A stretch of DNA of 24,072 bases from a virus. Below are positions 7,299 to 24,072 of this stretch, piece after piece. The stretch lies in IMG/VR virus record IMGVR_UViG_3300044618_001302, positions 1-24,072 of that record, one strand, 5' to 3'. Each line of letters opens with the position of its first letter. The stretch's first letter is position 1. Below the pieces are notes generated by a model. It saw only the letters and a program-made list of their open reading frames with translations. It ran no database searches and was not told the DNA's origin. The position numbers were made by a program, and so were the translations under genes.

Positions 7299-7490
7299 CT
7301 AGTTCCAAATAAACCCAATGGGTTTGGGTTGGTTATTAGTAAGGGGCTTGCCATCCGCATCTACAATTTCCTCATAAATGTGCCTGTCCCCGCTAATAGC
7401 ATAAGCTGTGCCCATTGAGGGCACTTGCCCCATGTCATACCAATAGTCATCGCACTGGACAAACGCCCGATTCACAGTCAGTTGCGTCAT
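7299..7490 (-). CDS. Hypothetical protein (63 aa) overlapping the RNR 3' end
   Basis: The ATG at 7490 (MTQLTVNRAFVQCDDYWYDM) is preceded by CGGAGTCGAAG and lies 44 nt inside the end of the ribonucleotide reductase gene, in another frame. The product looks strand-rich with several aromatic residues (DDYWYDMGQVPSMGTAY) and ends KPIGFIWN. No domain recognised. Because the overlap covers the reductase C-terminal redox cysteines, the two genes constrain each other there. Its 3' end contains a small perfect hairpin (AAACCC-ATT-GGGTTT) inside coding sequence. Confidence 0.6.
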   Translation of the reverse strand: MTQLTVNRAFVQCDDYWYDMGQVPSMGTAYAISGDRHIYEEIVDADGKPLTNNQPKPIGFIWN

Positions 7491-8330
7491 CTTCGACTCC
7501 GAAAGAAATGCCTGTAATAAGGCGTGTACTTGTAACCATTTCGTCGTGCTTTTCCTTGCTAATCTCCTCAAACGGAGCTTGCTTAAATCCATGGTCACTG
7601 TGCAGCAGGAAAGACAAACTCTTATGTCCTGTTGCATAATGGGTTGTCAAATACTCCTTAATGGCAGGTAGTTCCTCCTTTTTGTAATAGATAGTGCAGC
7701 TAACACTGTTATCACTCCAATTTTGCTGCAACTCCCGCACTACTTCCAACTGCTGTATCGCTGACATTTCTTTAGCCACCACTGTGTTGGCTGGATAAGA
7801 AAACGGGAACTCAGCGACAACAGTAGAGTAGTCAGGGCTACCATCAAAGTTTTCTTGAAACGCAACATTATACCCATGCTCCTTAATGGTGTCAACAAGT
7901 GGGTGATTAGATGCTACTCTGATACGCCGAATCATGTGCTGTGCATAGCCGGGGTGGCACCCCGGAGTAACGCCAGGAAGAAGAGATAGCGTACCGCTAG
8001 GCTTGACGGTAGTCAGCTTGACCGACTTGGGCCAACCATGCTTTGCACTATATTCTTCGTCAAAGGTACGAAGCTCCTTATACACATCACCCAACCAACT
8101 CTTTTGCTCTTTTGTAGCTTGTAGATAGCCCGTGATACCAATACCCATACGCATATTCTTATGCACTACAGCTTCCGTTTCTTTTAGATGGCACGGTAGG
8201 GCTAGAGAGTGCTTGTTAATGCGGTAGAGAAGCTGTGCTACATCACTAAGCTCTGCCTTACTAGTAATGTTAGGCAGGAAAATCTCAGCGAGGCAGCAAG
8301 TCTCATAGGGCTCTAGGGATTGTTCAGCGC
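7447..8330 (-). CDS. nrdJ: Class II ribonucleotide reductase, exon 2 (C-terminal half)
   Basis: Exon 2 starts with GCGCTGAACAA, which joins the T at 9147 to restore NPCAEQ. It encodes residues 341 (part) to 634. Visible features are Cys352 (YETCC, eleven residues after the catalytic Cys341, the same spacing as C408-C419 in the Lactobacillus leichmannii enzyme), the TTVKPSGTLSLLPG substrate loop, a WSDNSVSCTI block and the C-terminal shuttle cysteines Cys626 and Cys631 (CESGVCPVR), closely paralleling CEGGACPIK of the L. leichmannii enzyme. An in-frame ATG at 8394 lies inside the intron and is not a genuine start. It overlaps the downstream 63-residue gene by 44 nt. Confidence 0.93.
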
Positions 8331-9146
8331 CTTTATTGTTACTCCTCTTACGAGGGGATGTGTCATTTCTGCACACCTCTATGAGTTGCCCCATAGAACA
8401 GACTATATCACCACCTAAGTTTTCTTAGGGCTTATCGTCCGAGCTTATAACTGAAACTTGGAAGGACATAAGGACTTACAATTTCTTCAAACTTAGCACT
8501 GTCTTTCGCACGAAGCGACAAGTACCAATATTTACCATGGCGGTAGATGTTGAATTCCAAGTCAAGTTTTTCCTTGATGGCCTTCTTTAACAACCAGTTG
8601 TCACCGTAGCTGAATCCCTTAGTGTGGAGATTGTAGCTTGGTGTTGCATTGCATCGTTTATCCACATATCGTCCACCGTCTGCCATGAAGATAATAGCGA
8701 GTGCTTCTGCATCCAACAACGTTAGCATATGGGGATCGATTACTTTACGACCATCCAGATACACACGTTCCCAAATTGTAGTTAACTTAGGGTGCGCCTT
8801 TGACTCAAGGCGGACTTGTTCAGACCGGGTACACCCGTCTGTGTTGTAGTCCTTCCTGTCAGCAATGCGTGCACCAATGTCAGCTTCTTCCAATGTCTGC
8901 TTAGCCTTCTCCACGTAATCAATGTTGTCTTTACGCATATTCATAATGAATCGGGCGTTGACACATTTACCAGTGACGTATAAACCGCCGTCAAAGGTGG
9001 AAAAATAATACAGACGTTTACTCAGTTCTTTACTCATAGTCGTTGCACCTTCCATATCGGATTGGCACAGGATTGTCTCTGTAGAGAGTTTCCCTGTTTT
9101 TAGATAAGTTTTCCAGATAGTTTACACTATCAGGCCGCTACTGTCA
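8331..9146 (-). ncRNA. Group I intron in the RNR gene (816 nt)
   Basis: The 5' exon ends ...AACCCGT (9147) and the 3' exon starts GCGCTGAA (8330); joining them restores the Asn-Pro-Cys-Ala motif in frame. P1 is exon CCGU (9150-9147) pairing with guide GCGG (9138-9135), giving the obligatory U-G wobble at the splice site. P2 is GATAGT/ACTATC with a GTAA loop (9116-9131). P4 is ACAGG (9097-9093) with CCTGT (9071-9067), enclosing a P5 hairpin (TCTC/GAGA). P7 pairs GACTAT (9041-9036, R element GCAACGACTA) with ATAGTC (8406-8401, S element GATATAGTCTG). P9-type hairpins with GCAA and GTAA tetraloops follow, and the last intron base is G. The 5' half strongly resembles the T4 td intron, so subgroup IA is likely. 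An endonuclease gene fills the P8 region. Confidence 0.93.
8432..9037 (-). CDS. LAGLIDADG homing endonuclease inside the RNR intron
   Basis: 201 residues from the ATG at 9037 (MSKELSKRLYYF), which has GGAAGG ten bases upstream; an ATG at 9055 in the same frame lacks a ribosome binding site. The C-terminal half (from ~105) has LAIIFMADGG (113-122) as the second LAGLIDADG helix with acidic Asp120. SYNLHTKGFSYGDNWLLKKAIKEKLDLEFNI then WYLSLRAKDSAKFEEIVSPYV and PSFSYKL match the intron-encoded LAGLIDADG_2 type. The first motif is degenerate (YYFSTFDGGLYV, Asp16). It would cut intronless reductase alleles at the NPC codon and drive intron spread. Most phage intron endonucleases are GIY-YIG or HNH, so LAGLIDADG is less common here. 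The gene is intact. Confidence 0.87.
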   Translation of the reverse strand: MSKELSKRLYYFSTFDGGLYVTGKCVNARFIMNMRKDNIDYVEKAKQTLEEADIGARIADRKDYNTDGCTRSEQVRLESKAHPKLTTIWERVYLDGRKVIDPHMLTLLDAEALAIIFMADGGRYVDKRCNATPSYNLHTKGFSYGDNWLLKKAIKEKLDLEFNIYRHGKYWYLSLRAKDSAKFEEIVSPYVLPSFSYKLGR

Positions 9147-10167
9147 ACGGGTTATAGCCTTGCACAAGCGGATCAGGGTACTCAGTTTCACCTAGACGAC
9201 CAACCTTACGAGAGAGGTTCAGGTTAATGAGGCCATAGGGCTCACCCTTTCCAAGATAGCCGTCCCAAAACAACTCGTGCAAATCTGCAACGTCATTGCA
9301 TACAACGCTGTTGTTGGACATGGCACGCCAGGAGGGAATGTTACCCATATCCCACCGCTTTGCGAGCAAATACTCAATGTCGTCACAGTCCCCAATGGCA
9401 ATTTGTGCTGATCGGCGCACATTACCTGCTACAACAATAGAACCAATGATGTTCATAATGTCAAGGCAGTCAATTGGGCGCACGTTCTTGCCACTACGTT
9501 TTTCCAGAATATCAGAGATTTGTGCAATGCCATCACATAGAATCTCAGGACCACTAGCAACACCGCCAAACCCACGGATGGGAGCGCCCTTACCACGGAT
9601 GAGTTGCGGGCTGTAGGTAAAGGTACGGTCTTCCTTACGCTCGGCTAGGAATGCCGCTTTTAGCGTCTTACCCAGTAGCTTTACCCACCCTTCGCGGGTA
9701 TCAGGCACAATGAAGTCAGCACTAGCACTATCATTTCGTGTAGGGGCCTTGAAGCCACGCTTCACCTTTGGCAACTTATTAACATTCTCACGTTGAATGT
9801 TGTAGCCCACACCACTGCCGAGCATCAGCATATCCATGGCCCATGTGAATGGGCGCACGGGTTGGTCAACAACAGTGAAGGCGCAGTTTTGCAGGGAGGG
9901 TAGGCCCAAATCCTTCACTGTGCGGGTGCCAAGTTGCCAAAGAAATCGCCCTGCAACAGTGCCCTTTAGCGAGTGCATATAGCCCCGCATACGCTCTTTT
10001 TCTTCTAGCGTAAAGCCGACATTAAGTTGCTTATCAGAAGCAGTGAGGACACGATTAATAGTGTCATCCCATTCTTCAGTCGCAGAGGTGGGATCGGCGT
10101 CATTTAGGCGCCTAGCATAAGTGCGCTTGTAAGTTAAATAGCCAACAGTAGACCAAGGTGTCGTCAT
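9147..10167 (-). CDS. nrdJ: Class II (adenosylcobalamin) ribonucleotide reductase, exon 1
   Basis: It starts at ATG 10167 after AAGGAGAATAA. After splicing with 8330-7447 it gives a 634-residue enzyme (1905 nt including stop). It aligns along its length with the monomeric B12-dependent ribonucleoside triphosphate reductase of L. leichmannii (739 aa): VGYLTYKRTYARRL, LQNCAFTVV with redox Cys95, GSGVGYNIQRENV, PDTREGWV, IHGFGG-like IRGFGGVASGP, NIIGSIVVAGNVRRSAQIAIG and SNNSV. Catalytic Cys341 and Glu343 (NPCAE) form only after splicing. It reduces ribonucleotides without oxygen or a small subunit but needs adenosylcobalamin from the host. Without splicing, translation runs five codons into the intron and stops at 9130, giving an inactive 345-residue protein. 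Confidence 0.95.
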
Positions 10168-15488: not shown

Positions 15489-17411
15489 TTATTCCATTTC
15501 TTCCATATCTTGCCAGTTCAAACCCATTGAAACACCAATACGCATGGTGTCAAATGGGAACGTAGGGTCTAAGAAACCCTTTACATACTTAGGTGAATTC
15601 TCCATAACATCTTTAACAACAGAGATAACATTATACACCTCTCTCTCCTTGCAGTCAACAAGGATGGAGTCATGCACTGTGTTAATTAAGAGACACTTGC
15701 CATGCAAACCCTCCGCCTCTAGACGTCGTTGCAAGATGCCCAGGATGAGGGGCACCATGTCACCTGTTGCACCGCCTTGCACTGGGTAGTTCTTTAGTTC
15801 TGTAGGTGATAGGGCATGCCCTCCTTTCCAATCTACATAGTAGCTATTAAAAACATATCTACGACCATAGGGAGTAGTATATGTATATCTATATTGTACT
15901 CCTGTTTCTTCTTCTTTATACACTACTTCCTTCTCTTTATCTGCTGTTCTTAGCATTGCATCATGCCACTCTTTGACACCCTTATAGCGAGTGTAAAACA
16001 CCTTGATGAACTTTTTAGCTTCATCAAATGGAATTTTACCCTGCTCTGCAATGGCCTTGGGGCCTGCCCCATAGATGAGTTGGAAGGAACGGGGCTTGAA
16101 TGCTTTACGTTCAGCTTTGGTAGGTGCCCTACCATACATTTCCTTGTACAGCTCAATGTGCATGTCAACGCCATGTTGAATGTCATGAATGAGTTGTTTG
16201 TCACCTGACAAGTAGGCAAGCCACACCACTTCTAGCTGGCTGTAGTCAAATTCAATAAGGCGGCCAGTAGAGCCCCACCTACTAATAAAGCTGCGCTTTA
16301 CATCCCCTGCATCAGTTTGATTTTGCAGGTTTGGGCTAGTGCAACTTAGCCGCCCGGTAGATGTTGCACAATGGTTTAGCTGCGGATAGATGTACCCCTC
16401 AGGAAAGCGTAGGTCTAGCAATCCTTGGTAATAGGTATCCTTAACCTTTGCAAGGAAACGCAAATCCTTAATGAGTTGGGCTACAGCCGCAGCCTTGCCA
16501 GTCTTGTCTGCCTCAATGATGGCATCCAGGGTGTCATCCCCGGTTGGATAGTAGCCACTAGAACCCCTCACCAAGGCCCCTAGAAGCCCCGTAGAGGCGT
16601 CAACGCGACCGGGTAGGTAGGTAGATACCTCCCGGGTCTTAAAACGCGGTTTCCCATTTTTGTAAAAGCCATCTAGCTCCTTCACCTTCTCCTTAACTTC
16701 ACCCCCAAAAAAGTAGAGGGAAAGCTGCTTAGGTGAGGCAGGGTCTAAAGCAGGAGCTAATGAATTGAGTGTTGCTAGAGAGTTGATATAGCCTTCTTCG
16801 TATATCTTCCGCTGCCTCTCTACAAATCCCCAATCCACTGCCATACCTGCCAGGGCCATATTAGTAGTGGCCCTTAGAGCGTCCATTTGCATTAGGAGTA
16901 GGTCTAGCTGCCCTTGTTCCTTAGCTACTTCCCACTGCTTGTAGAAGATGGCTTCCGTATTTAGAATGTCACCACTTAAGTAGGGCTCCAACTCTTCTTT
17001 GGGAATGTCTGTAGTGTCAATGCCCGCCTTCCAATATGCTTTAATCTTGTCATCCTTGAGGGCATGCTTGCCTACATACTTCTCTGTCAATTCGTCTAGA
17101 GAGGCATACTTGTGCTGCTGCCCTGTAAGGATGTATTCTGCAAGTTGAGTATCCCAAATGCGAGGCAGTGGCTCATCAGGGTAATTGCGCCATACGTAAG
17201 AGAGGTCAAACTTAATGTTGTGCCCTACCCACATGAAAGTGCCTGCGTCCGGTGCGCCGGTCGGTTTGTAGGCATACTCAATGCGCAGCTTACCTCCTTC
17301 TACCTTATACCCATACATTACAATGGAGTTGCCCCGCCACATGGGGTGGGCCTTGTTGTTGCCAACAGGGCAGCGAATTGTGGTTTCAGCATCGAAGAAT
17401 AAGGGTGTCAC
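15489..17411 (-). CDS. Family A (T7-like) DNA polymerase with 3'-5' exonuclease
   Basis: 640 residues, GTG start at 17411 after AGGAAACTAAT, overlapping the upstream stop (GTGA). Exonuclease: FDAET (Asp7, Glu9), GHNIKFD (63-69) and YLSGD (Asp148). Polymerase: ATSTGRLSCTSPNLQNQ (349-365), motif A FDYSQLE (Asp389), motif B ERKAFKPRSFQLIYG (434-448, with Phe443 at the position of E. coli Phe762 and T7 Tyr526), QGGATGD (545-551) and motif C NTVHDS (His580, Asp581). All catalytic residues are present. It replicates the phage genome with the helicase, primase and OB-fold protein encoded around it. Shorter than T7 gp5 (704 aa). Confidence 0.96.
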   Translation of the reverse strand: MTPLFFDAETTIRCPVGNNKAHPMWRGNSIVMYGYKVEGGKLRIEYAYKPTGAPDAGTFMWVGHNIKFDLSYVWRNYPDEPLPRIWDTQLAEYILTGQQHKYASLDELTEKYVGKHALKDDKIKAYWKAGIDTTDIPKEELEPYLSGDILNTEAIFYKQWEVAKEQGQLDLLLMQMDALRATTNMALAGMAVDWGFVERQRKIYEEGYINSLATLNSLAPALDPASPKQLSLYFFGGEVKEKVKELDGFYKNGKPRFKTREVSTYLPGRVDASTGLLGALVRGSSGYYPTGDDTLDAIIEADKTGKAAAVAQLIKDLRFLAKVKDTYYQGLLDLRFPEGYIYPQLNHCATSTGRLSCTSPNLQNQTDAGDVKRSFISRWGSTGRLIEFDYSQLEVVWLAYLSGDKQLIHDIQHGVDMHIELYKEMYGRAPTKAERKAFKPRSFQLIYGAGPKAIAEQGKIPFDEAKKFIKVFYTRYKGVKEWHDAMLRTADKEKEVVYKEEETGVQYRYTYTTPYGRRYVFNSYYVDWKGGHALSPTELKNYPVQGGATGDMVPLILGILQRRLEAEGLHGKCLLINTVHDSILVDCKEREVYNVISVVKDVMENSPKYVKGFLDPTFPFDTMRIGVSMGLNWQDMEEME

Positions 17412-17641: not shown

Positions 17642-17854
17642 TCAATGCTCTGCGGGCAGCAAATCCCGTAGCTCACTGCGGTGCTCGGATCGCAACTTAG
17701 CAAGACGGCCGTTACATTTATGTCCTACCATGTAACCGGCGTGCGTTACTACAACGCATTGACTATGGTCAGCCCAATTTATTTCTAGCCAGAAGATATT
17801 GGGCTGTGTCTCGTTAGATACGACTGACATACTAGTAATGCCGTGTTCGATCAC
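17642..17854 (-). CDS. Small hypothetical protein (70 aa, GTG start)
   Basis: GTG 17854 follows GGAGAGTAAA and overlaps the helicase stop (GTGA). The first 45 residues look strand-rich (NIFWLEINWADHSQCVVVTH); the C-terminal third is a basic amphipathic helix (NGRLAKLRSEHRSELRDLLP). No domain recognised. An ATG eight codons in is a weaker alternative start. Confidence 0.62.
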   Translation of the reverse strand: MIEHGITSMSVVSNETQPNIFWLEINWADHSQCVVVTHAGYMVGHKCNGRLAKLRSEHRSELRDLLPAEH

Positions 17855-20103
17855 TTTACTCTCCAGTGCGAAATATATCGAGCCTTGCTCGGCTCAATGG
17901 TTACTTGAAACTTCCCATGCCTATGTGCTTCCAGGGAATCAGGCCCGCCATGCAGCTTATTCTTTGCGATGGAAATGTAGCGATCAAGGGTGCCATCGCG
18001 CGGGTCACCAATAATGATGATGCCGTCTGCTTCTCCGGGCTTGTCTGTCTTACTTCCGCGAAGGTGGTCCATTGTCACCCATTTCTCACCTTCAGCACTA
18101 CCGTCTAATTGACTCACCGCAATGACTGGGCAATGAGTTTTAGCCAACTCTCTAGCCCATTTGTATAGAGCACCAATGCGCAAGTCATCGCGGTCGTTCT
18201 TAAACCCTTGCACCTTATCTAGCTGATCGAAGATGATGAGGCCGGGCTTAAACTCCTTGCACATTCTTTCTACGGTGTGGGGGGTTACCTTAGTCTCATC
18301 ATCAGTGATGAGGAAACGATTACCGCCCGAAGCCAGAAACGCAGTTTCGTACTTACTAATAGAGGCAAACAAGTCACCTGTAGTCACTTGATGGTGAGCC
18401 TGCACTACTCTACTCATCACCTTAGCACTACCTTCTTCGTTGTTAATCCACAAAATGTGTTCATCTTCTGCCATTTGTGGCATCATGTAAGAAGCTTCAG
18501 AAGCTATCATGGTGGTGTTGTGAGTAACTGTGTAATCCCCCAGTAAGAACAGGTGGTCTTGATCCACGCAAAATCCATAATAATCACCTTCTCCAATAGG
18601 TTGCACATCAATGCCAAAATGTAGCCCCTTGCGCTTAGGTACTACTTTCGAGCGACAAAACTTTTTGCGCTCTACTTTTACGGGGATTCTATGCACATCA
18701 CCATAAATAGACACTCGCCAATAACTTACTCCGTTAACAATTTTCTCACGCATAGTGGCGTGAAAGCCCAACCCACGCGCAAGATGAAGAATTTGTGTAG
18801 CTAATCCTTTTCGTACTTGTGTTATCTCATAACCATATCGCCCGCGACTACCATCTGTGTCCAGTAACCCTGCCAGTAAGCAAAGTCTGTTTTCCTTGCA
18901 ATCCACCATATATTCATGGGGGATATGCTTGTTATTTAGCAGATTTAGTCCCGCCAAAGAATCACGGACGTAGTTCTTTTTACCTCTACCATTGTTAATA
19001 ATAGCCGAGAGTGCTTTTCCTTGGTTTGTCCTAACTTCCTCACGATAGGACACACCTACGGTAGATACATACATACGTAACCACCTCAATACTTCACAGT
19101 CTGCGTTAGTAAGATTGCTGTTTTCTGAGGTTCCATCACCTAACCACAAACCCACAAAATATGGGTGCAAAGAATGCCGTGCTTCTGGATACTCTACAGC
19201 AGCCTTCCAGCCTTTGCACCGTGCTTTTGTGCTTTTGGGAAGTGCAAGGTAGTCTCGTACACTGATGTTTAGTACATCGCCATTCTTATGCTTACCCTCG
19301 GTTTTGGAGCGCTTCAAAGAAAGAATATGGTCTTCGTTCACCACGTAACTTTCTCCAAACCCGTAACTGACACGGTAGAGCATGCTACTACCCTTAGTCA
19401 CACCTGATACTAAGCGCGGTGCGTTACCTGGGCCAGCAACTACATCACCATTTTGCACATCCTGTACATTTTTAATAGTACCATTATGCATAAGAACGGG
19501 AGTGTCTTTACCTAGGCATTTACCCGCCTCGGGACGAGCGGCAAGGATGATGAAATCACCCTTCCTTAGCGGCCCAAGTGATACATTAAGCTCTGTAAGG
19601 CGCCACTGTAGTCCCTTACTTGCAACCACGCTGCTAATGTAGCTAAGAGAAGGGGGAACAAATAGCTTAGTCCTATCGAGTGTTGCCCCAATTTCCTTAT
19701 CACGCTCATCCATAAAGTTACGAACATTGTCCAGGCTAGTGCCAGTGCGTCCCACACTGACGCCCAAAACTTCGTCATAGATGAGTGTTGCATAGTGCTT
19801 CTCAATGAGGGCTTTTTCAATGGCTTCTAGGGGTGCCGTAGTGGTTGGTTTCTTCAGTAGGTCAAAGGCAGCTTCATATGCAGCAGGGTCTTTAAGTTTC
19901 TTGCCTCGGCAAATGTAGAAGAATGTGCGTAGAGTGTCAATGTCCAAGGCAGTGTGTGCGGGGTAGTTATCCCAATAGTCACCCACTACAGAGAAAATGT
20001 CACTTGTAATGGAAGAGACATTGCTCTTCTTAATAAGGGGGGCAAAGCGTGCCCACTTATCCTTATCTGCTGCTAGTCGAAGAATGTCAATGTCATAGCT
20101 CAT
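17851..20103 (-). CDS. DnaB/T7 gp4-type replicative helicase interrupted by an intein
   Basis: 750-residue precursor; removing the 334-residue intein leaves 416 residues. Residues 1-195 are an N-terminal helical domain plus the start of a RecA fold. The P-loop is ARPEAGK then, after the intein, TTMIASEA, together ARPEAGKTT (Walker A). GLIIFDQLDKV is Walker B, PVIAVSQLDGS the next RecA motif, and DHLRGSKTDKPGEADGIIII the region that in SF4 helicases holds sensor and Arg-finger residues. It lacks a primase domain; primase is a separate gene at 20652, so the T7 gp4 functions are split. ATG 20103 follows GGGAGTTTAG. Activity requires intein excision, because the P-loop Thr is otherwise displaced. 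Confidence 0.94.
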   Translation of the reverse strand: MSYDIDILRLAADKDKWARFAPLIKKSNVSSITSDIFSVVGDYWDNYPAHTALDIDTLRTFFYICRGKKLKDPAAYEAAFDLLKKPTTTAPLEAIEKALIEKHYATLIYDEVLGVSVGRTGTSLDNVRNFMDERDKEIGATLDRTKLFVPPSLSYISSVVASKGLQWRLTELNVSLGPLRKGDFIILAARPEAGKCLGKDTPVLMHNGTIKNVQDVQNGDVVAGPGNAPRLVSGVTKGSSMLYRVSYGFGESYVVNEDHILSLKRSKTEGKHKNGDVLNISVRDYLALPKSTKARCKGWKAAVEYPEARHSLHPYFVGLWLGDGTSENSNLTNADCEVLRWLRMYVSTVGVSYREEVRTNQGKALSAIINNGRGKKNYVRDSLAGLNLLNNKHIPHEYMVDCKENRLCLLAGLLDTDGSRGRYGYEITQVRKGLATQILHLARGLGFHATMREKIVNGVSYWRVSIYGDVHRIPVKVERKKFCRSKVVPKRKGLHFGIDVQPIGEGDYYGFCVDQDHLFLLGDYTVTHNTTMIASEASYMMPQMAEDEHILWINNEEGSAKVMSRVVQAHHQVTTGDLFASISKYETAFLASGGNRFLITDDETKVTPHTVERMCKEFKPGLIIFDQLDKVQGFKNDRDDLRIGALYKWARELAKTHCPVIAVSQLDGSAEGEKWVTMDHLRGSKTDKPGEADGIIIIGDPRDGTLDRYISIAKNKLHGGPDSLEAHRHGKFQVTIEPSKARYISHWRVK
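18517..19518 (-). mobile_element. Intein with LAGLIDADG endonuclease in the helicase P-loop
   Basis: 334 residues, precursor 196-529. Residue 1 is Cys (CLGKDTPVLMHNG, block A). Block B is VVNEDHILSL with His64; the usual TxxH reads NxxH. Endonuclease motifs are FVGLWLGDG (121-129) and LLAGLLDTDG (214-223), each ending in the acidic residue. Block F is YYGFCVDQDHLFLL; block G is DYTVTHN followed by Thr as the +1 residue. The insertion point, between Lys and Thr of the Walker A motif, is a known site for DnaB-type inteins. All residues needed for splicing and cleavage appear intact, so it is probably active. Codon usage is close to that of the phage. Confidence 0.95.
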
Positions 20104-20483: not shown

Positions 20484-20685
20484 CAAAGTGCCCCACTTTC
20501 TTCCATCCAGTAGTAATGTGGGTGTAAACACTACCCACCTTATCCACATCGACGCCCTTTTTAATACATAGCAGCTTATAAACCCTAGGCTCAGTGCCTG
20601 CCATTACCACAGTCATGAAGAGGCCACCATCACTAGCCTCGTAAATATCGCCTACGGTAATTTCATCAGTTCTTCCAGTGTCCAC
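20473..20685 (-). CDS. Small PGD-type paralogue, copy 1 (70 aa, GTG start)
   Basis: The only in-frame initiator is GTG at 20685 (MDTGRTDEITVGDIYEASDG), 34 nt inside the primase gene, with a poor ribosome binding site, so translation may depend on coupling. TVGDIYEASDGGLFMTVV parallels PGDI...YLL of the other copies, and GWKKVGHFDGI matches their W.K.G..D end. This is the most diverged member. Confidence 0.62.
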   Translation of the reverse strand: MDTGRTDEITVGDIYEASDGGLFMTVVMAGTEPRVYKLLCIKKGVDVDKVGSVYTHITTGWKKVGHFDGI

Positions 20686-21467
20686 GTCTTAGCTTCCTTT
20701 TCAAACATTGTTGACACATTAGAGTAGAGGGAACTAAGCTCCCTCACCATGTTTATAGCGCCCTTGTGTCCAGCAGCATCATTGTCTAGCCAAATGGTAA
20801 CTCTCTTGTAATCATGGGGCATATTAGTAGGGGTTTTGGTGCCCATCACTGCTAAAGCACTCTTACCCACTACATGCAGCTTGTAACAAGATAGGAGGTC
20901 TTCGGTAATGTATAAAGTGTCCCCGTCCTTAGGATGTTCCCGGCAAAGATAGCAATAACCAGAGAACTTTGAAGTTACTTCCGTGGTATATTTCGGCTTA
21001 CCTGTATAGTTTCGACGTTGCACGCCTACAACGTCCCCCAATGCGTCGTCATAAATGGGTAAATATATGCCTTTGGCATCCCACTTAATAGTGTAATAGC
21101 GGCAAGTTTCAGAGTCAAACCCATGCTCTAGTAGCCAAAGAGGCACGCTGCCCTCACATGCTGCCAAGGCCCACTCACCCTGTAACTTACGCGACGGGAC
21201 CACTCCCAAGGGTGCGGTCACTTCCCCTCTCAGCATGGAGGCACGCTCTTTAGGTCTATACATGCCATGCACGCCACAATTGTGGCACATGAACACATAG
21301 GCACCATCGGTGTATTTAATATAGAGCCTAGCCCTATGGTCCGTCATGCCTGTATCTTCACACCTATGGTGAGAGACATTCACTTGCTCTTCGTCAGCCA
21401 TGCTCTCCCACTCAGGGTGAGAGAGGGCCAGGGTTTCCATAGCCTTATGGCCGAATAGAGAAGTCAT
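20652..21467 (-). CDS. T7-type DNA primase (zinc ribbon plus TOPRIM)
   Basis: 271 residues from ATG 21467 (MTSLFGHKAMETL), which overlaps the upstream TGA as ATGA and has AGGA upstream. Zinc ribbon: HHRCEDTG (33-40) and MCHNCGVHG (60-68), giving Cys36, Cys61 and Cys64 plus a His. TOPRIM: YITEDLLS (Glu189) and IWLDNDAAGHKG (Asp228, Asp230). This matches the N-terminal half of T7 gp4; here it is free-standing, with the helicase three small genes downstream. It makes RNA primers for lagging-strand synthesis. The zinc ribbon appears to use one His among its ligands (His33 or His34 with Cys36), which differs from the usual four Cys. Confidence 0.9.
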   Translation of the reverse strand: MTSLFGHKAMETLALSHPEWESMADEEQVNVSHHRCEDTGMTDHRARLYIKYTDGAYVFMCHNCGVHGMYRPKERASMLRGEVTAPLGVVPSRKLQGEWALAACEGSVPLWLLEHGFDSETCRYYTIKWDAKGIYLPIYDDALGDVVGVQRRNYTGKPKYTTEVTSKFSGYCYLCREHPKDGDTLYITEDLLSCYKLHVVGKSALAVMGTKTPTNMPHDYKRVTIWLDNDAAGHKGAINMVRELSSLYSNVSTMFEKEAKTWTLEELMKLP

Positions 21468-21694
21468 TTTACCAGTCCTTTTTCTTTCGCATATGCAAGT
21501 ATTGCCGCATGCACATCGTTGATAGACATTACGACAACCTCGCCAGGGGTTACGGCCCACCCACCCACTTTAATGTGCTGCCCGCGCCCGTCATCTGCGA
21601 GGCGATAGTAGCCTCTATCGCCAGCTTCTGTATCGTAGAAGCGTATGTTATACTCTTCTGAAATAGTAACACTGCCTCTCTCATATTGGTCCAT
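21464..21694 (-). CDS. Tandem small paralogue, DxxxAIxxYA type, copy 3 (76 aa)
   Basis: ATG 21694 follows AAGAGGTAGAT, which overlaps the upstream stop. MDQYERGSVTISEEYNIRFY and a strand-rich body lead to GEVVVMSINDVHAAILAYAK. It shares the order 'strand IRxY ... PVVxxxxDLxxAIxxYAxxK' with the genes at 21697 and 21925. No known domain. The helix AILAYAKEKG ends the protein. The function is unknown. Confidence 0.7.
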   Translation of the reverse strand: MDQYERGSVTISEEYNIRFYDTEAGDRGYYRLADDGRGQHIKVGGWAVTPGEVVVMSINDVHAAILAYAKEKGLVK

Positions 21695-22700: not shown

Positions 22701-22802
22701 TTACCAATGCACGATGATTGCAATGAGGAGTGCCGTGATTGTGGCGGCTAGGCAAACCTCCACAAACAAAGACCATTTACGTGGCAGGAATAGGCGCCAC
22801 AT
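22701..22802 (-). CDS. Single-pass membrane miniprotein (33 aa)
   Basis: MWRLFLPRKWSLFVEV then CLAATITALLIAIIVHW. The ATG overlaps the AAA+ gene stop (TGATG), with GAGGAAGTGTG upstream. A positively charged, Trp-containing N-terminus and a ~20-residue hydrophobic helix indicate a cytoplasmic-side-in single-span peptide. Downstream, 22657-22700 has a hairpin GGGGC-CTTGT-GCCCC without a clear U-tract and no gene. The function is unknown. Confidence 0.55.
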   Translation of the reverse strand: MWRLFLPRKWSLFVEVCLAATITALLIAIIVHW

Positions 22803-23860
22803 CACACTTCCTCGCCAAACACCTTGCGGTAGATTTCCGAGACAGCTTTCTTGTCATCATCATGCAGCTTTTGCATGTAGGCTACCCGGAAGGCATGACC
22901 TTGCGAGTAACGCCCCATCTTGCGACCCCAATTGATGAGGGTACGAGGGCTCATGGTGAGGCCCAGTTTACCGCTGTCATACGCACTGCGCACTAGACCC
23001 GCCATCTTCACCATATCCTGAGCCAGTGCCTTCGGCACGCTGGTGCGGCTAGTGATGATGGATACTTCGTGAGTGGCACTCAGGTAGTCCAGCCGGATCG
23101 TATTAGTAAAGCGGTCAATGGTGGCAGTGTTTTGCACGCCTACACCATTGAATGCACCCGTGGTGTCACCCTGGCCCACCGTGTTACCGGCAAAGACAAG
23201 GCGGAAATTATCATGGGGGACGCATGTGCGGTCAGCACTGGTGCCCGGCTTCTCTTTCAGGTAGAGATAACCACCATCTTCCAGCAGGTTTTGCATGCCC
23301 ATTGCAATTTCTGCGGGCATCAGTTCCCACTCGTCAACAAGGCATACAGCACCATACTTGACAGCTTCAGTGATGGCACCATCGCGCCACACAGTGGCCC
23401 CGCCTTCGACAACAAGCGTGCCAAAGAGTGAGGCACTCTCCACATCACCGGACATATTGATGCGGATGAAGGGCCTATTCAACATGGCGCATACATACTT
23501 CACCATCGAACTTTTCCCGCTGCCCGTAGGGCCTGTGAGAAGAGTCTTGTCGTTATCCTCAATGCCAGCAACAAGTAGTGCCGCCTCCTCATTTTGCACT
23601 ACATAATCAGGATCAACAGTGGGCACAAGGCGGGCAATTTCGGGATTGCTATTAGTAGGTAGCACAGTGACAGCGAAATCACCGAATGATGGCACGTAAC
23701 CAAACACATCAGAAAACTTGGTAGCACCCTTCGGAATGCTAACCTTCGGCACTTCCGGTGCAGTCTTCTCTACCTTTTTCTTGGTGGCAGGTACCTCAGC
23801 AGCACCCTTGTCAGTAATCTCGCGGAGCTTTGCGAGGAGTTCAGCAGCGACTTCAGCCAT
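22802..23860 (-). CDS. AAA+ ATPase of the CobS/MoxR (AAA_5) type
   Basis: 352 residues. Charged, Lys-rich N-terminal ~45 residues, then LLTGPTGSGKSSMV (107-120, Walker A), VCLVDEWEL (172-180, Walker B, Asp176 Glu177), FAGNTVG (sensor 1, Asn226) and TMSPRTLINWG (sensor 2 region). This is the CobS-like / MoxR family that works with a VWA-domain partner; the next gene upstream encodes one. In cells CobS-CobT help insert cobalt into B12; in phages the pair is often annotated CobS/CobT but its role is unproven. ATG 23860 is preceded by AAGGAAATTTAATC. Confidence 0.85.
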   Translation of the reverse strand: MAEVAAELLAKLREITDKGAAEVPATKKKVEKTAPEVPKVSIPKGATKFSDVFGYVPSFGDFAVTVLPTNSNPEIARLVPTVDPDYVVQNEEAALLVAGIEDNDKTLLTGPTGSGKSSMVKYVCAMLNRPFIRINMSGDVESASLFGTLVVEGGATVWRDGAITEAVKYGAVCLVDEWELMPAEIAMGMQNLLEDGGYLYLKEKPGTSADRTCVPHDNFRLVFAGNTVGQGDTTGAFNGVGVQNTATIDRFTNTIRLDYLSATHEVSIITSRTSVPKALAQDMVKMAGLVRSAYDSGKLGLTMSPRTLINWGRKMGRYSQGHAFRVAYMQKLHDDDKKAVSEIYRKVFGEEV

Positions 23861-23862
23861 GA

Positions 23863-24072
23863 TTAAATTTCCTTATCAAGAATAGAAAGAATAGAACTAG
23901 ATAGGTCTTCGACCCTATTAAGAACAACATTCTTGGTGTAATATTTCTTGACATTGCTGTCTAGGATGCCCACACCATAGATGGATGCAGCTTTACCTTT
24001 CTCAATGGATTCCACTACATGCTTAGTGTAGCCCGTAACATCACCAGCCCAATCCCGGCCAGCGGGGCTACC
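23863..24072 (-). CDS. VWA-domain (CobT-like) protein, C-terminal end only (runs off window)
   Basis: 69 residues plus stop, open at the right edge. It reads GSPAGRDWAGDVTGYTKHVV ... ASIYGVGILDSNVKKYYTKN then VVLNRVEDLSSSILSILDKE. The block YGVGI..SNVKKYY....VV..VEDL...IL is the last strand-helix of VWA domains in CobT-type partners of AAA+ ATPases. The gene overlaps nothing and is separated by 2 nt from the AAA+ gene, so the two are an operon pair. The MIDAS residues lie upstream, outside the window. Confidence 0.75.
   Translation of the reverse strand, partial: GSPAGRDWAGDVTGYTKHVVESIEKGKAASIYGVGILDSNVKKYYTKNVVLNRVEDLSSSILSILDKEI

What the first reader, a model, noticed from the sequence alone, without database searches (positions are those of the whole stretch)
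22802..24072. CobS/CobT-like pair encoded together with a B12-dependent reductase
The phage needs adenosylcobalamin for its reductase and also carries an AAA+ (CobS-like) and VWA (CobT-like) operon pair. One reading is support for cobalamin supply; another is a MoxR-VWA type chaperone acting on a phage or host protein, unrelated to B12. The co-occurrence can be tested across phages.
Basis: inference. Interest (0 to 1): 0.5.

Follow-up and report, generated by a model that had tools for sequence, protein, structure and literature searches.

The report
Phage motor-plus-metallopeptidase pair, not cobaltochelatase
Two neighbouring virus genes usually labelled as vitamin B12 synthesis genes look instead like a motor protein paired with a metal-dependent protein-cutting enzyme, and they are not consistently found with the virus's B12-dependent enzyme.

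Summary
The pair is real. window:22802-23860(-) encodes a CobS-like AAA+ ATPase; 23863-24072(-) is the last 69 residues of a VWA protein cut by the window edge. Relative L002 (identical AAA+ protein) gives the whole 565-aa partner. No CobN was found in 24 phage records. The partner is not CobT proper: it has an N-terminal HExxH...N-x-x-E-D domain (46 of 46 close relatives; invariant in 58 aligned rows), modelled at pLDDT 94, with weak fold matches led by small zincin metallopeptidases. Alphaproteobacterial CobT has 0 of 79 HExxH and sits in a separate clade; cellular CobS likewise. The VWA module is closest to NorD and Rea1/midasin. Most likely this is an ATP-driven MoxR-type remodelling machine with a built-in metallopeptidase, usually sited in replication gene clusters; substrate unknown, activity untested. 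Iyer et al. 2021 described this architecture in jumbo phages; linking it to phage 'CobST' appears new in the papers I could search.

The parts
22802..23860 (-). CobS-like (MoxR/CbbQ-type) AAA+ ATPase, 352 aa, complete
   Evidence: AAA_5 4.9e-20, CbbQ_C 9.6e-9; phrog_249 5.5e-63; TIGR01650 CobS 141.3 bits against cut-off 558.55; G110, G113, G115, K116, D176, E177, N226, R250, R306 invariant in 15 diverse phage homologues
23863..24072 (-). C-terminal 69 residues of the metallopeptidase-VWA partner ('CobT'), cut by the window edge; whole protein in L002:8301-9998(+)
   Evidence: CobT_C 6.9e-5; full relative 565 aa with HETSH at 64-68, E94-D95, MIDAS D391-x-S393-x-S395
20652..21560 (-). Primase-like (Toprim) gene downstream of the pair: neighbourhood
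   Evidence: phrog_47 DNA primase 1.5e-22
17851..20103 (-). DnaB-like helicase with an intein: neighbourhood
   Evidence: DnaB_C 2e-10, Hom_end_hint 8e-14; phrog_19 5.6e-44
15489..17411 (-). Family A DNA polymerase: neighbourhood
   Evidence: DNA_pol_A 1.9e-50
7447..10167 (-). Adenosylcobalamin-dependent (class II, RTPR-like) ribonucleotide reductase, split by a group I intron (8379-9155) carrying a LAGLIDADG ORF
   Evidence: TIGR02505 1.9e-45 and 4.8e-49 for the two halves; RF00028 60.1 bits; LAGLIDADG_2 2e-18

Best explanation
The pair is a MoxR/CbbQ-type AAA+ ATPase (the 'CobS') and a partner (the 'CobT') built of an N-terminal zincin-type metallopeptidase domain, a low-confidence linker and a C-terminal NorD/Rea1-like VWA domain. 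It is not a cobaltochelatase. Shown here by sequence: conserved AAA+ motifs, conserved MIDAS residues, an HExxH plus N-x-x-E-D signature in nearly all phage partners examined, separation from the cellular CobS and CobT clades, and no consistent tie to a B12-dependent reductase. Inferred: the AAA+ ring works on the VWA domain as NorQ does on NorD; the MIDAS holds an acidic residue of a target protein; ATP hydrolysis remodels the target; the tethered metallopeptidase cuts it. The target is probably a phage or host protein met during genome replication, because the pair lies among replication genes in four of the five phage groups seen.
For: HExxH...ED in 46 of 46 window-clade partners, 19 of 19 readable N-termini of divergent homologues found with CobS alone, 75 of 76 of a CobT-retrieved (pattern-biased) set, 8 of 11 named phages; only P44, H64, E65, H68, N91, E94, D95, G108 invariant over 58 rows at 15-50% identity to the first. 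Metallopeptidase and VWA halves are separate neighbouring genes in six contigs. N-domain model pLDDT 93.9, VIA-align rows led by jannalysin, selecase and BlaR1. VWA module nearest NorD (Z 20.2) and MDN1/Rea1. Cellular CobT and CobS single clades. Replication genes nearby.
Against: No activity, metal binding or complex was tested. Fold matches of the N-domain are weak (best Z 5.0; Foldseek best E 1.4; unrelated TetR-family rows such as KstR score 4.6). BUCTxx99 and nickie have lost HExxH, and ICP2 lacks the E of E-D, so peptidase activity cannot be essential to every member. In the CRP-810-like clade the neighbours are integrase and terminase, not replication genes.
Confidence: 0.75

Rival explanations
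1. Cobalamin supply: phage CobST joins host CobN (or a mosaic chelatase) and raises B12 output for a class II reductase, as proposed for viruses by Liu et al. 2021 (PMC8651126).
For: Homology to CobS and CobT. Pair and class II reductase occur together in 15 of 17 window-clade records and in T5S1 and G038. The Synechococcus elongatus control has a CobN/Mg-chelatase family gene, so some hosts could supply the third subunit.
Against: 14 of 49 pair-bearing records have class I and 15 no detected reductase, among them the ICP2 and CRP-810 genomes; 42 of 44 window-type class II records lack the AAA+ gene. No CobN in 24 phage records, and none in the E. coli control although E. coli phages carry the pair. 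Proteins lie outside the cellular clades and the partner has a metallopeptidase signature.
Confidence: 0.07
2. Virion assembly: a MoxR-vWA chaperone with peptidase that processes structural proteins, as proposed for jumbo phages by Iyer et al. 2021 (PMC7824862).
For: Same architecture described there. In the CRP-810-like clade terminase genes are among the neighbours.
Against: In the window, ICP2, SSU5-like phages, their divergent relatives and T4-like cyanophages the pair lies among replication genes.
Confidence: 0.2
3. Plain AAA+/VWA chaperone or metal-insertion factor: the HExxH domain binds metal or a partner but does not cut, as in NorQD- or CbbQO-type activation of a metalloenzyme.
For: VWA module nearest NorD; HExxH lost in BUCTxx99 and nickie and decayed in ICP2 while MIDAS stays; bacterial CobT keeps the fold without the motif.
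Against: The catalytic-type glutamate E65 is as invariant as the two histidines over 58 divergent rows, which metal binding alone would not require.
Confidence: 0.25

Closest known systems
MoxR AAA+ / metallopeptidase-vWA pair of group 2.2 jumbo phages (Iyer et al. 2021, PMC7824862; passages seen)
   Same: AAA+ gene beside a vWA protein with an N-terminal metallopeptidase domain.
   Different: There proposed for virion assembly and not linked to CobS/CobT (0 uses of either name counted); here in phages of ordinary size, mostly among replication genes. The proteins named there were not compared.
Aerobic cobaltochelatase CobS and CobT
   Same: AAA+ plus VWA gene pair; homologous N-domain (hhalign probability 98.6, E 8.3e-16, 205 columns) and VWA domain.
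   Different: Bacterial CobT lacks HExxH (0 of 79); separate clades; gene order CobS-CobT in 79 of 79 cellular loci against partner-AAA+ in all 56 window-clade loci where both could be placed.
NorQD (MoxR-type AAA+ with VWA partner) and Rea1/midasin MIDAS
   Same: VWA module: NorD Z 20.2, rmsd 6.3, 241 aligned; MDN1 Z 20.0, Rea1 19.8.
   Different: Sequence identity 15-18% in those rows; the metallopeptidase domain lies outside the main aligned region (314-565 in the top row).
Cyanophage 'peptidase' (phrog_459) with cobS
   Same: HExxH...ED and DWSGSM in S-RSM4, P-SSM2 and ACG-2014d; both genes within a few kb of each other.
   Different: Very divergent (longest end branch of the CobT tree); in P-SSM2 and ACG-2014d other genes lie between the two.

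Membership tests
Aerobic cobaltochelatase (CobNST) | AAA+ subunit over the curated CobS cut-off (TIGR01650) | tested here: not met
   141.3 bits against 558.55
Aerobic cobaltochelatase (CobNST) | Placement inside the cellular CobS and CobT clades | tested here: not met
   Cellular CobT 18 rows, SH-aLRT 100, without any phage row; cellular CobS 17 rows, SH-aLRT 100; quick trees, long branches
Aerobic cobaltochelatase (CobNST) | CobN catalytic subunit available | tested here: inconclusive
   0 of 24 phage records; E. coli control lacks it, S. elongatus has the family; the window's host is unknown
[quoted passage not shown]
   needs an enzyme assay
MoxR-type AAA+ / VWA systems | AAA+ ATPase of the CbbQ/NirQ/NorQ kind with conserved ATPase motifs | tested here: met
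   CbbQ_C 9.6e-9; NorQ 1.8e-19 and CbbQ 3.2e-18 in the PDB sequence search; motif residues invariant (motif names recalled)
MoxR-type AAA+ / VWA systems | Neighbouring VWA gene with an intact MIDAS | tested here: met
   D391, S393, S395, D470 invariant in 48 full-length rows; partner gene beside the AAA+ gene in 56 of 62 window-clade loci, the other six having no partner on the stretch held
MoxR-type AAA+ / VWA systems | VWA fold of the NorD/Rea1 kind | tested here: met
   NorD Z 20.2, MDN1 Z 20.0
HExxH zincin (gluzincin-like) metallopeptidase | HExxH plus a downstream glutamate, conserved | tested here: met
   H64, E65, H68, E94 invariant in 58 rows; 46 of 46 window-clade partners; role of E94 as third ligand is inferred
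HExxH zincin (gluzincin-like) metallopeptidase | Zincin fold | tested here: inconclusive
   Model pLDDT 93.9 with the motif in helix 52-71 and E94 in helix 84-105; best Z 5.0 to jannalysin, Foldseek nothing under E 1
HExxH zincin (gluzincin-like) metallopeptidase | Proteolytic activity and metal binding | not testable with these tools
   needs purified protein
Jumbo-phage MoxR / metallopeptidase-vWA pair (Iyer 2021) | Sequence relation to the proteins named there (ASV44728, ASV44729) | not tested
   Architecture matches the description; those sequences were not fetched

The most novel reading that the evidence does not exclude
Phage 'CobST' is an ATP-driven, VWA-gated metalloprotease machine serving genome replication, perhaps by clearing crosslinked or blocking proteins from phage DNA, as SPRTN with p97 does in eukaryotes (recalled), or by cutting a host replication or defence protein. 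Cellular cobaltochelatase CobT is a relative whose protease site decayed and whose scaffold was recruited to metal insertion. The B12 annotation of hundreds of phage genomes would then be wrong.
Probability: 0.2. Interest if true: 0.85.

Novelty: new variant of a known kind. Interest (0 to 1): 0.6.

Why it matters
CobS is a core gene of marine T4-like cyanophages (PMC3037559, passages seen) and phage cobS is repeatedly treated as a vitamin B12 gene (PMC8651126, PMC11705849, PMC5083919; passages seen). Here the partner 'peptidase' and cobS match the same numbers of cyanophage records by name, 450 each, and Liu et al. call the peptidase label a mistake, which the conserved HExxH...ED speaks against. 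If the pair is an ATP-coupled metalloprotease, B12 inferences drawn from viral metagenomes need revision, and a widespread machine becomes testable in culturable phages such as ICP2, SSU5-like phages and cyanophages.

Tried and rejected
Rejected: a pair devoted to the class II reductase (counts above). Rejected: a plain CobT reading of the partner, since bacterial CobT lacks the metal-site residues and is a separate clade.

Led nowhere or gave little. Foldseek with the N-terminal model gave no match under E 1; the second look ranked metallopeptidases first, but at Z 5.0 or less and with TetR-type regulators and a myosin domain among the first eight rows. With the full-length model the VWA domain filled the list, so the N-domain was barely tested there; no row named cobaltochelatase is among those shown. 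Sequence searches of solved structures found CobT through its C-terminal part. I found no model coordinates in the Python box, so metal-site distances were not measured. Searches for papers on the metallopeptidase theme led to one description of the architecture (Iyer 2021). A Staphylococcus phage AAA+ protein of phrog_249 has two larger neighbours that matched no partner family in PHROGs; not followed further.

Limits. The 50 records were picked by me, mostly longer contigs, from 174 viral and phage loci then held; many are fragments, so 'none found' is not proof of absence, and 17 of the 49 with the pair are one clade. Class II calls for window-clade, G018, G023 and G026 records rest on TIGR02505 as best family, below its cut-off (L260 of G018 was not scanned). 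The reverse test covered 44 of 81 class II records, the others being shorter contigs; one of its two positives (G366) is the same contig as L058 of the window clade. One search used only the C-terminal half of the reductase. Rows of A3 and A4 were hand-picked, and the CobT scan used a pattern containing HE, which favours HExxH in that set; the CobS-retrieved sets do not have that bias. Trees are quick ones without bootstrap. In the CobS tree the cellular clade lies nearer the CRP-810-like phages than the window clade, and ICP2 falls on a long branch with a bacterial sequence. Overlap of the 1188 class II and 542 CobS records was judged from organism names only. My first profile alignment held five stray reading frames; one search repeats it without them and its numbers are the ones quoted.

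Full report
Observation. The window is a 24,072-base virus record; its own assembly holds no more. On the minus strand, 22802-23860 encodes a 352-aa AAA+ protein (AAA_5 4.9e-20, CbbQ_C 9.6e-9; phrog_249 5.5e-63). Just upstream, 23863-24072 encodes the last 69 residues of a protein matching the CobT VWA domain (6.9e-5). The two frames are 2 bases apart. So the pair is real, but only about an eighth of the VWA partner is in the window.

The whole partner. A scan of viral contigs gave 57 loci encoding relatives of the AAA+ protein. L002 has an identical AAA+ protein and a complete partner of 565 aa. Its C-terminus matches CobT_C at 7.6e-23; no Pfam family matched its N-terminus. The N-terminus holds HETSH at 64-68 and NILEDNRID from residue 91. 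Of 5'-complete partners, 46 of 46 in the window clade have HExxH followed by ED. Divergent homologues retrieved with the AAA+ alignment alone show it in 19 of 25 reading frames; the other six are C-terminal halves of genes split in two (L236, L239, L240, L245, L247, L251), and in each the upstream half carries the motif. In the CobT-retrieved set 75 of 76 have it, but that scan's pattern contained HE. In an alignment of 58 N-termini at 15-50% identity to the first, the invariant columns are P44, H64, E65, H68, N91, E94, D95 and G108. HExxH with a downstream glutamate is the signature of gluzincin-type metal sites (recalled).

Exceptions. Of 11 named phages, eight have HExxH...ED. ICP2 has HECYH but V-V-D where others have E-D; BUCTxx99 and nickie lack HExxH. 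L207 has an extra residue in the motif. A DxSxSM MIDAS motif is kept in all 11.

Structure. The N-terminal 215 residues model at mean pLDDT 93.9: helix, two strands, the HExxH helix (52-71), a short helix (74-80), the E94 helix (84-105), then further helices. Foldseek found nothing under E 1. In the second look at 556 of its 558 candidates the first three rows are metallopeptidases, jannalysin (Z 5.0), selecase (4.8) and BlaR1 (4.6); an M48-like peptidase, abylysin, ArdC, SPRTN, Wss1 and IrrE also appear, but so do KstR regulators at 4.6 and 4.1 and a myosin domain at 4.2. These scores are weak; their agreement with the motif is what gives them weight. The full-length model (pLDDT 82.7) places residues 314-565 with NorD of the NorQ-NorD complex (Z 20.2, rmsd 6.3, 241 aligned) and near the MIDAS domains of MDN1 and Rea1 (Z 20.0 to 19.2).

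Not CobT. Of 80 alphaproteobacterial loci fetched with a CobT query, 79 gave a CobT frame and none has HExxH in its first 300 residues; the matching stretch reads D-(S/A)-x-A-L-(R/K) and the later ED reads EQ. Profile alignment of 38 bacterial CobT N-termini with the phage domain is significant (probability 98.6, E 8.3e-16, 205 columns) and lays these stretches over each other. So the domains are homologous and bacterial CobT looks like a form that has lost the metal site. In a tree built without the motif columns, cellular CobT is one clade (18 rows, SH-aLRT 100, branch length 1.63) and the window-clade proteins group with ICP2 (99). Cellular CobS is also one clade (17 rows, SH-aLRT 100), nearer to CRP-810-like phages than to the window clade. 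In 299 Pseudomonadota genomes 32 matched the N-domain profile; of the 20 given as loci, five have HExxH...ED, two (L355, L359) have broken variants and 13 are of the bacterial CobT type.

B12 test. In 50 chosen records, 49 with the pair, I searched the reductase barrel (PF02867), the class I small subunit (PF00268) and monomeric class II (TIGR02505). Class II: 20, namely 15 of 17 window-clade records, G018, G023, G026, and T5S1 and G038, the last two over the NrdJ cut-off. Class I: 14, including SSU5, nickie, RHEph10, V1VFA-S, BUCTxx99, pJN2-26, Cyrano and the cyanophage S-RSM4. None found: 15, including the ICP2 and CRP-810 genomes. In one starred clade of the CobS tree (96), L236 has class II by TIGR02505 while L061, L065 and L240 have class I: reductase class changes while the pair stays. 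In reverse, 44 of 81 records with a window-type class II reductase (plus ctYwJ313) were searched for the AAA+ gene: 2 have it, G042 and a window-clade contig already known. The circular 54.8-kb ctYwJ313 record has none. Among GenBank phages, matches to the C-terminal half of the window reductase occur in 1188 records, 686 of them Mycobacterium phages; the AAA+ gene is matched in 542, of which 450 bear cyanophage names. CobN was found in 0 of 24 phage records; the E. coli control lacks it while Synechococcus elongatus has the family; Escherichia and Klebsiella phages carry the pair.

Neighbourhood. In the window and ICP2 the pair precedes primase, helicase and DNA polymerase. In seven annotated phages of 103-118 kb a gene labelled DNA polymerase, in most DNA polymerase III alpha, follows the AAA+ gene within 1.5 kb. 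In 11 divergent contigs, ten of 60 neighbouring proteins scanned match the DNA polymerase family phrog_405; by size and position one lies in each contig except L235, which ends just past the AAA+ gene. In S-RSM4 and ACG-2014d the genes lie between g46/g47 and g45, and vB_OspM_OC has an endonuclease subunit and clamp genes around them. T5S1 has polymerase and primase/helicase genes downstream. The CRP-810-like set of nine contigs differs: integrase (7 proteins) and terminase (6) lead among 62 neighbours scanned, with a few polymerase or helicase matches. The neighbours scanned were 122 of the 180 listed.

Cyanophages. tblastn with the S-RSM4 'peptidase' and with its cobS finds the same numbers of records under the names Synechococcus (365), Cyanophage (61) and Prochlorococcus (24); the match was by name counts, not record by record. 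HExxH...ED and DWSGSM are present in the three cyanophage partners read: S-RSM4, P-SSM2, ACG-2014d.

Literature (passages seen by word search). Liu et al. [quoted passage not shown] Iyer et al. 2021 (PMC7824862) describe the MoxR and metallopeptidase-vWA pair in group 2.2 jumbo phages and suggest virion assembly. A 2016 review (PMC5083919) says cyanophage cobS is not actually homologous to bacterial cobS, yet keeps the B12 speculation. The CRP-810 paper calls the function uncertain (PMC11288001). I found no paper joining these threads in my searches of an open-licence library.

Verdict. The pair is a MoxR-type AAA+/VWA system whose partner is very probably a metallopeptidase-VWA protein; the cobalamin reading is unlikely. 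Proteolysis, the role in replication and the substrate are inference.

Noticed in passing
window:8379-9155(-): Group I intron (RF00028, 60.1 bits) with a LAGLIDADG ORF (8432-9055) splits the class II reductase gene.
   Followed up: partly
window:17851-20103(-): The DnaB-like helicase carries an intein (Hom_end_hint, LAGLIDADG_3).
   Followed up: no
L236, L239, L240, L245, L247, L251: Metallopeptidase and VWA domains are encoded as two abutting or overlapping genes instead of one.
   Followed up: partly
control genome Caulobacter vibrioides: Matches the CobT family PF06213 but not CobN PF02514: cellular CobT without a detected CobN, so cellular CobT may not always serve cobalt insertion.
   Followed up: no
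L370:3707-4825: A Staphylococcus phage AAA+ protein of phrog_249 (labelled porphyrin biosynthesis) whose two larger neighbours match only families of unknown function; one carries an HExxH without a recognised VWA.
   Followed up: partly
L347-L351: Five bacterial genomes encode the HExxH...ED type of protein; no CobS-like gene was found on the short stretches held, and whether these are prophages is untested.
   Followed up: partly
L355, L359: Bacterial relatives with broken HExxH variants (HEIVCH; HMAAH), possible intermediates of site decay.
   Followed up: no
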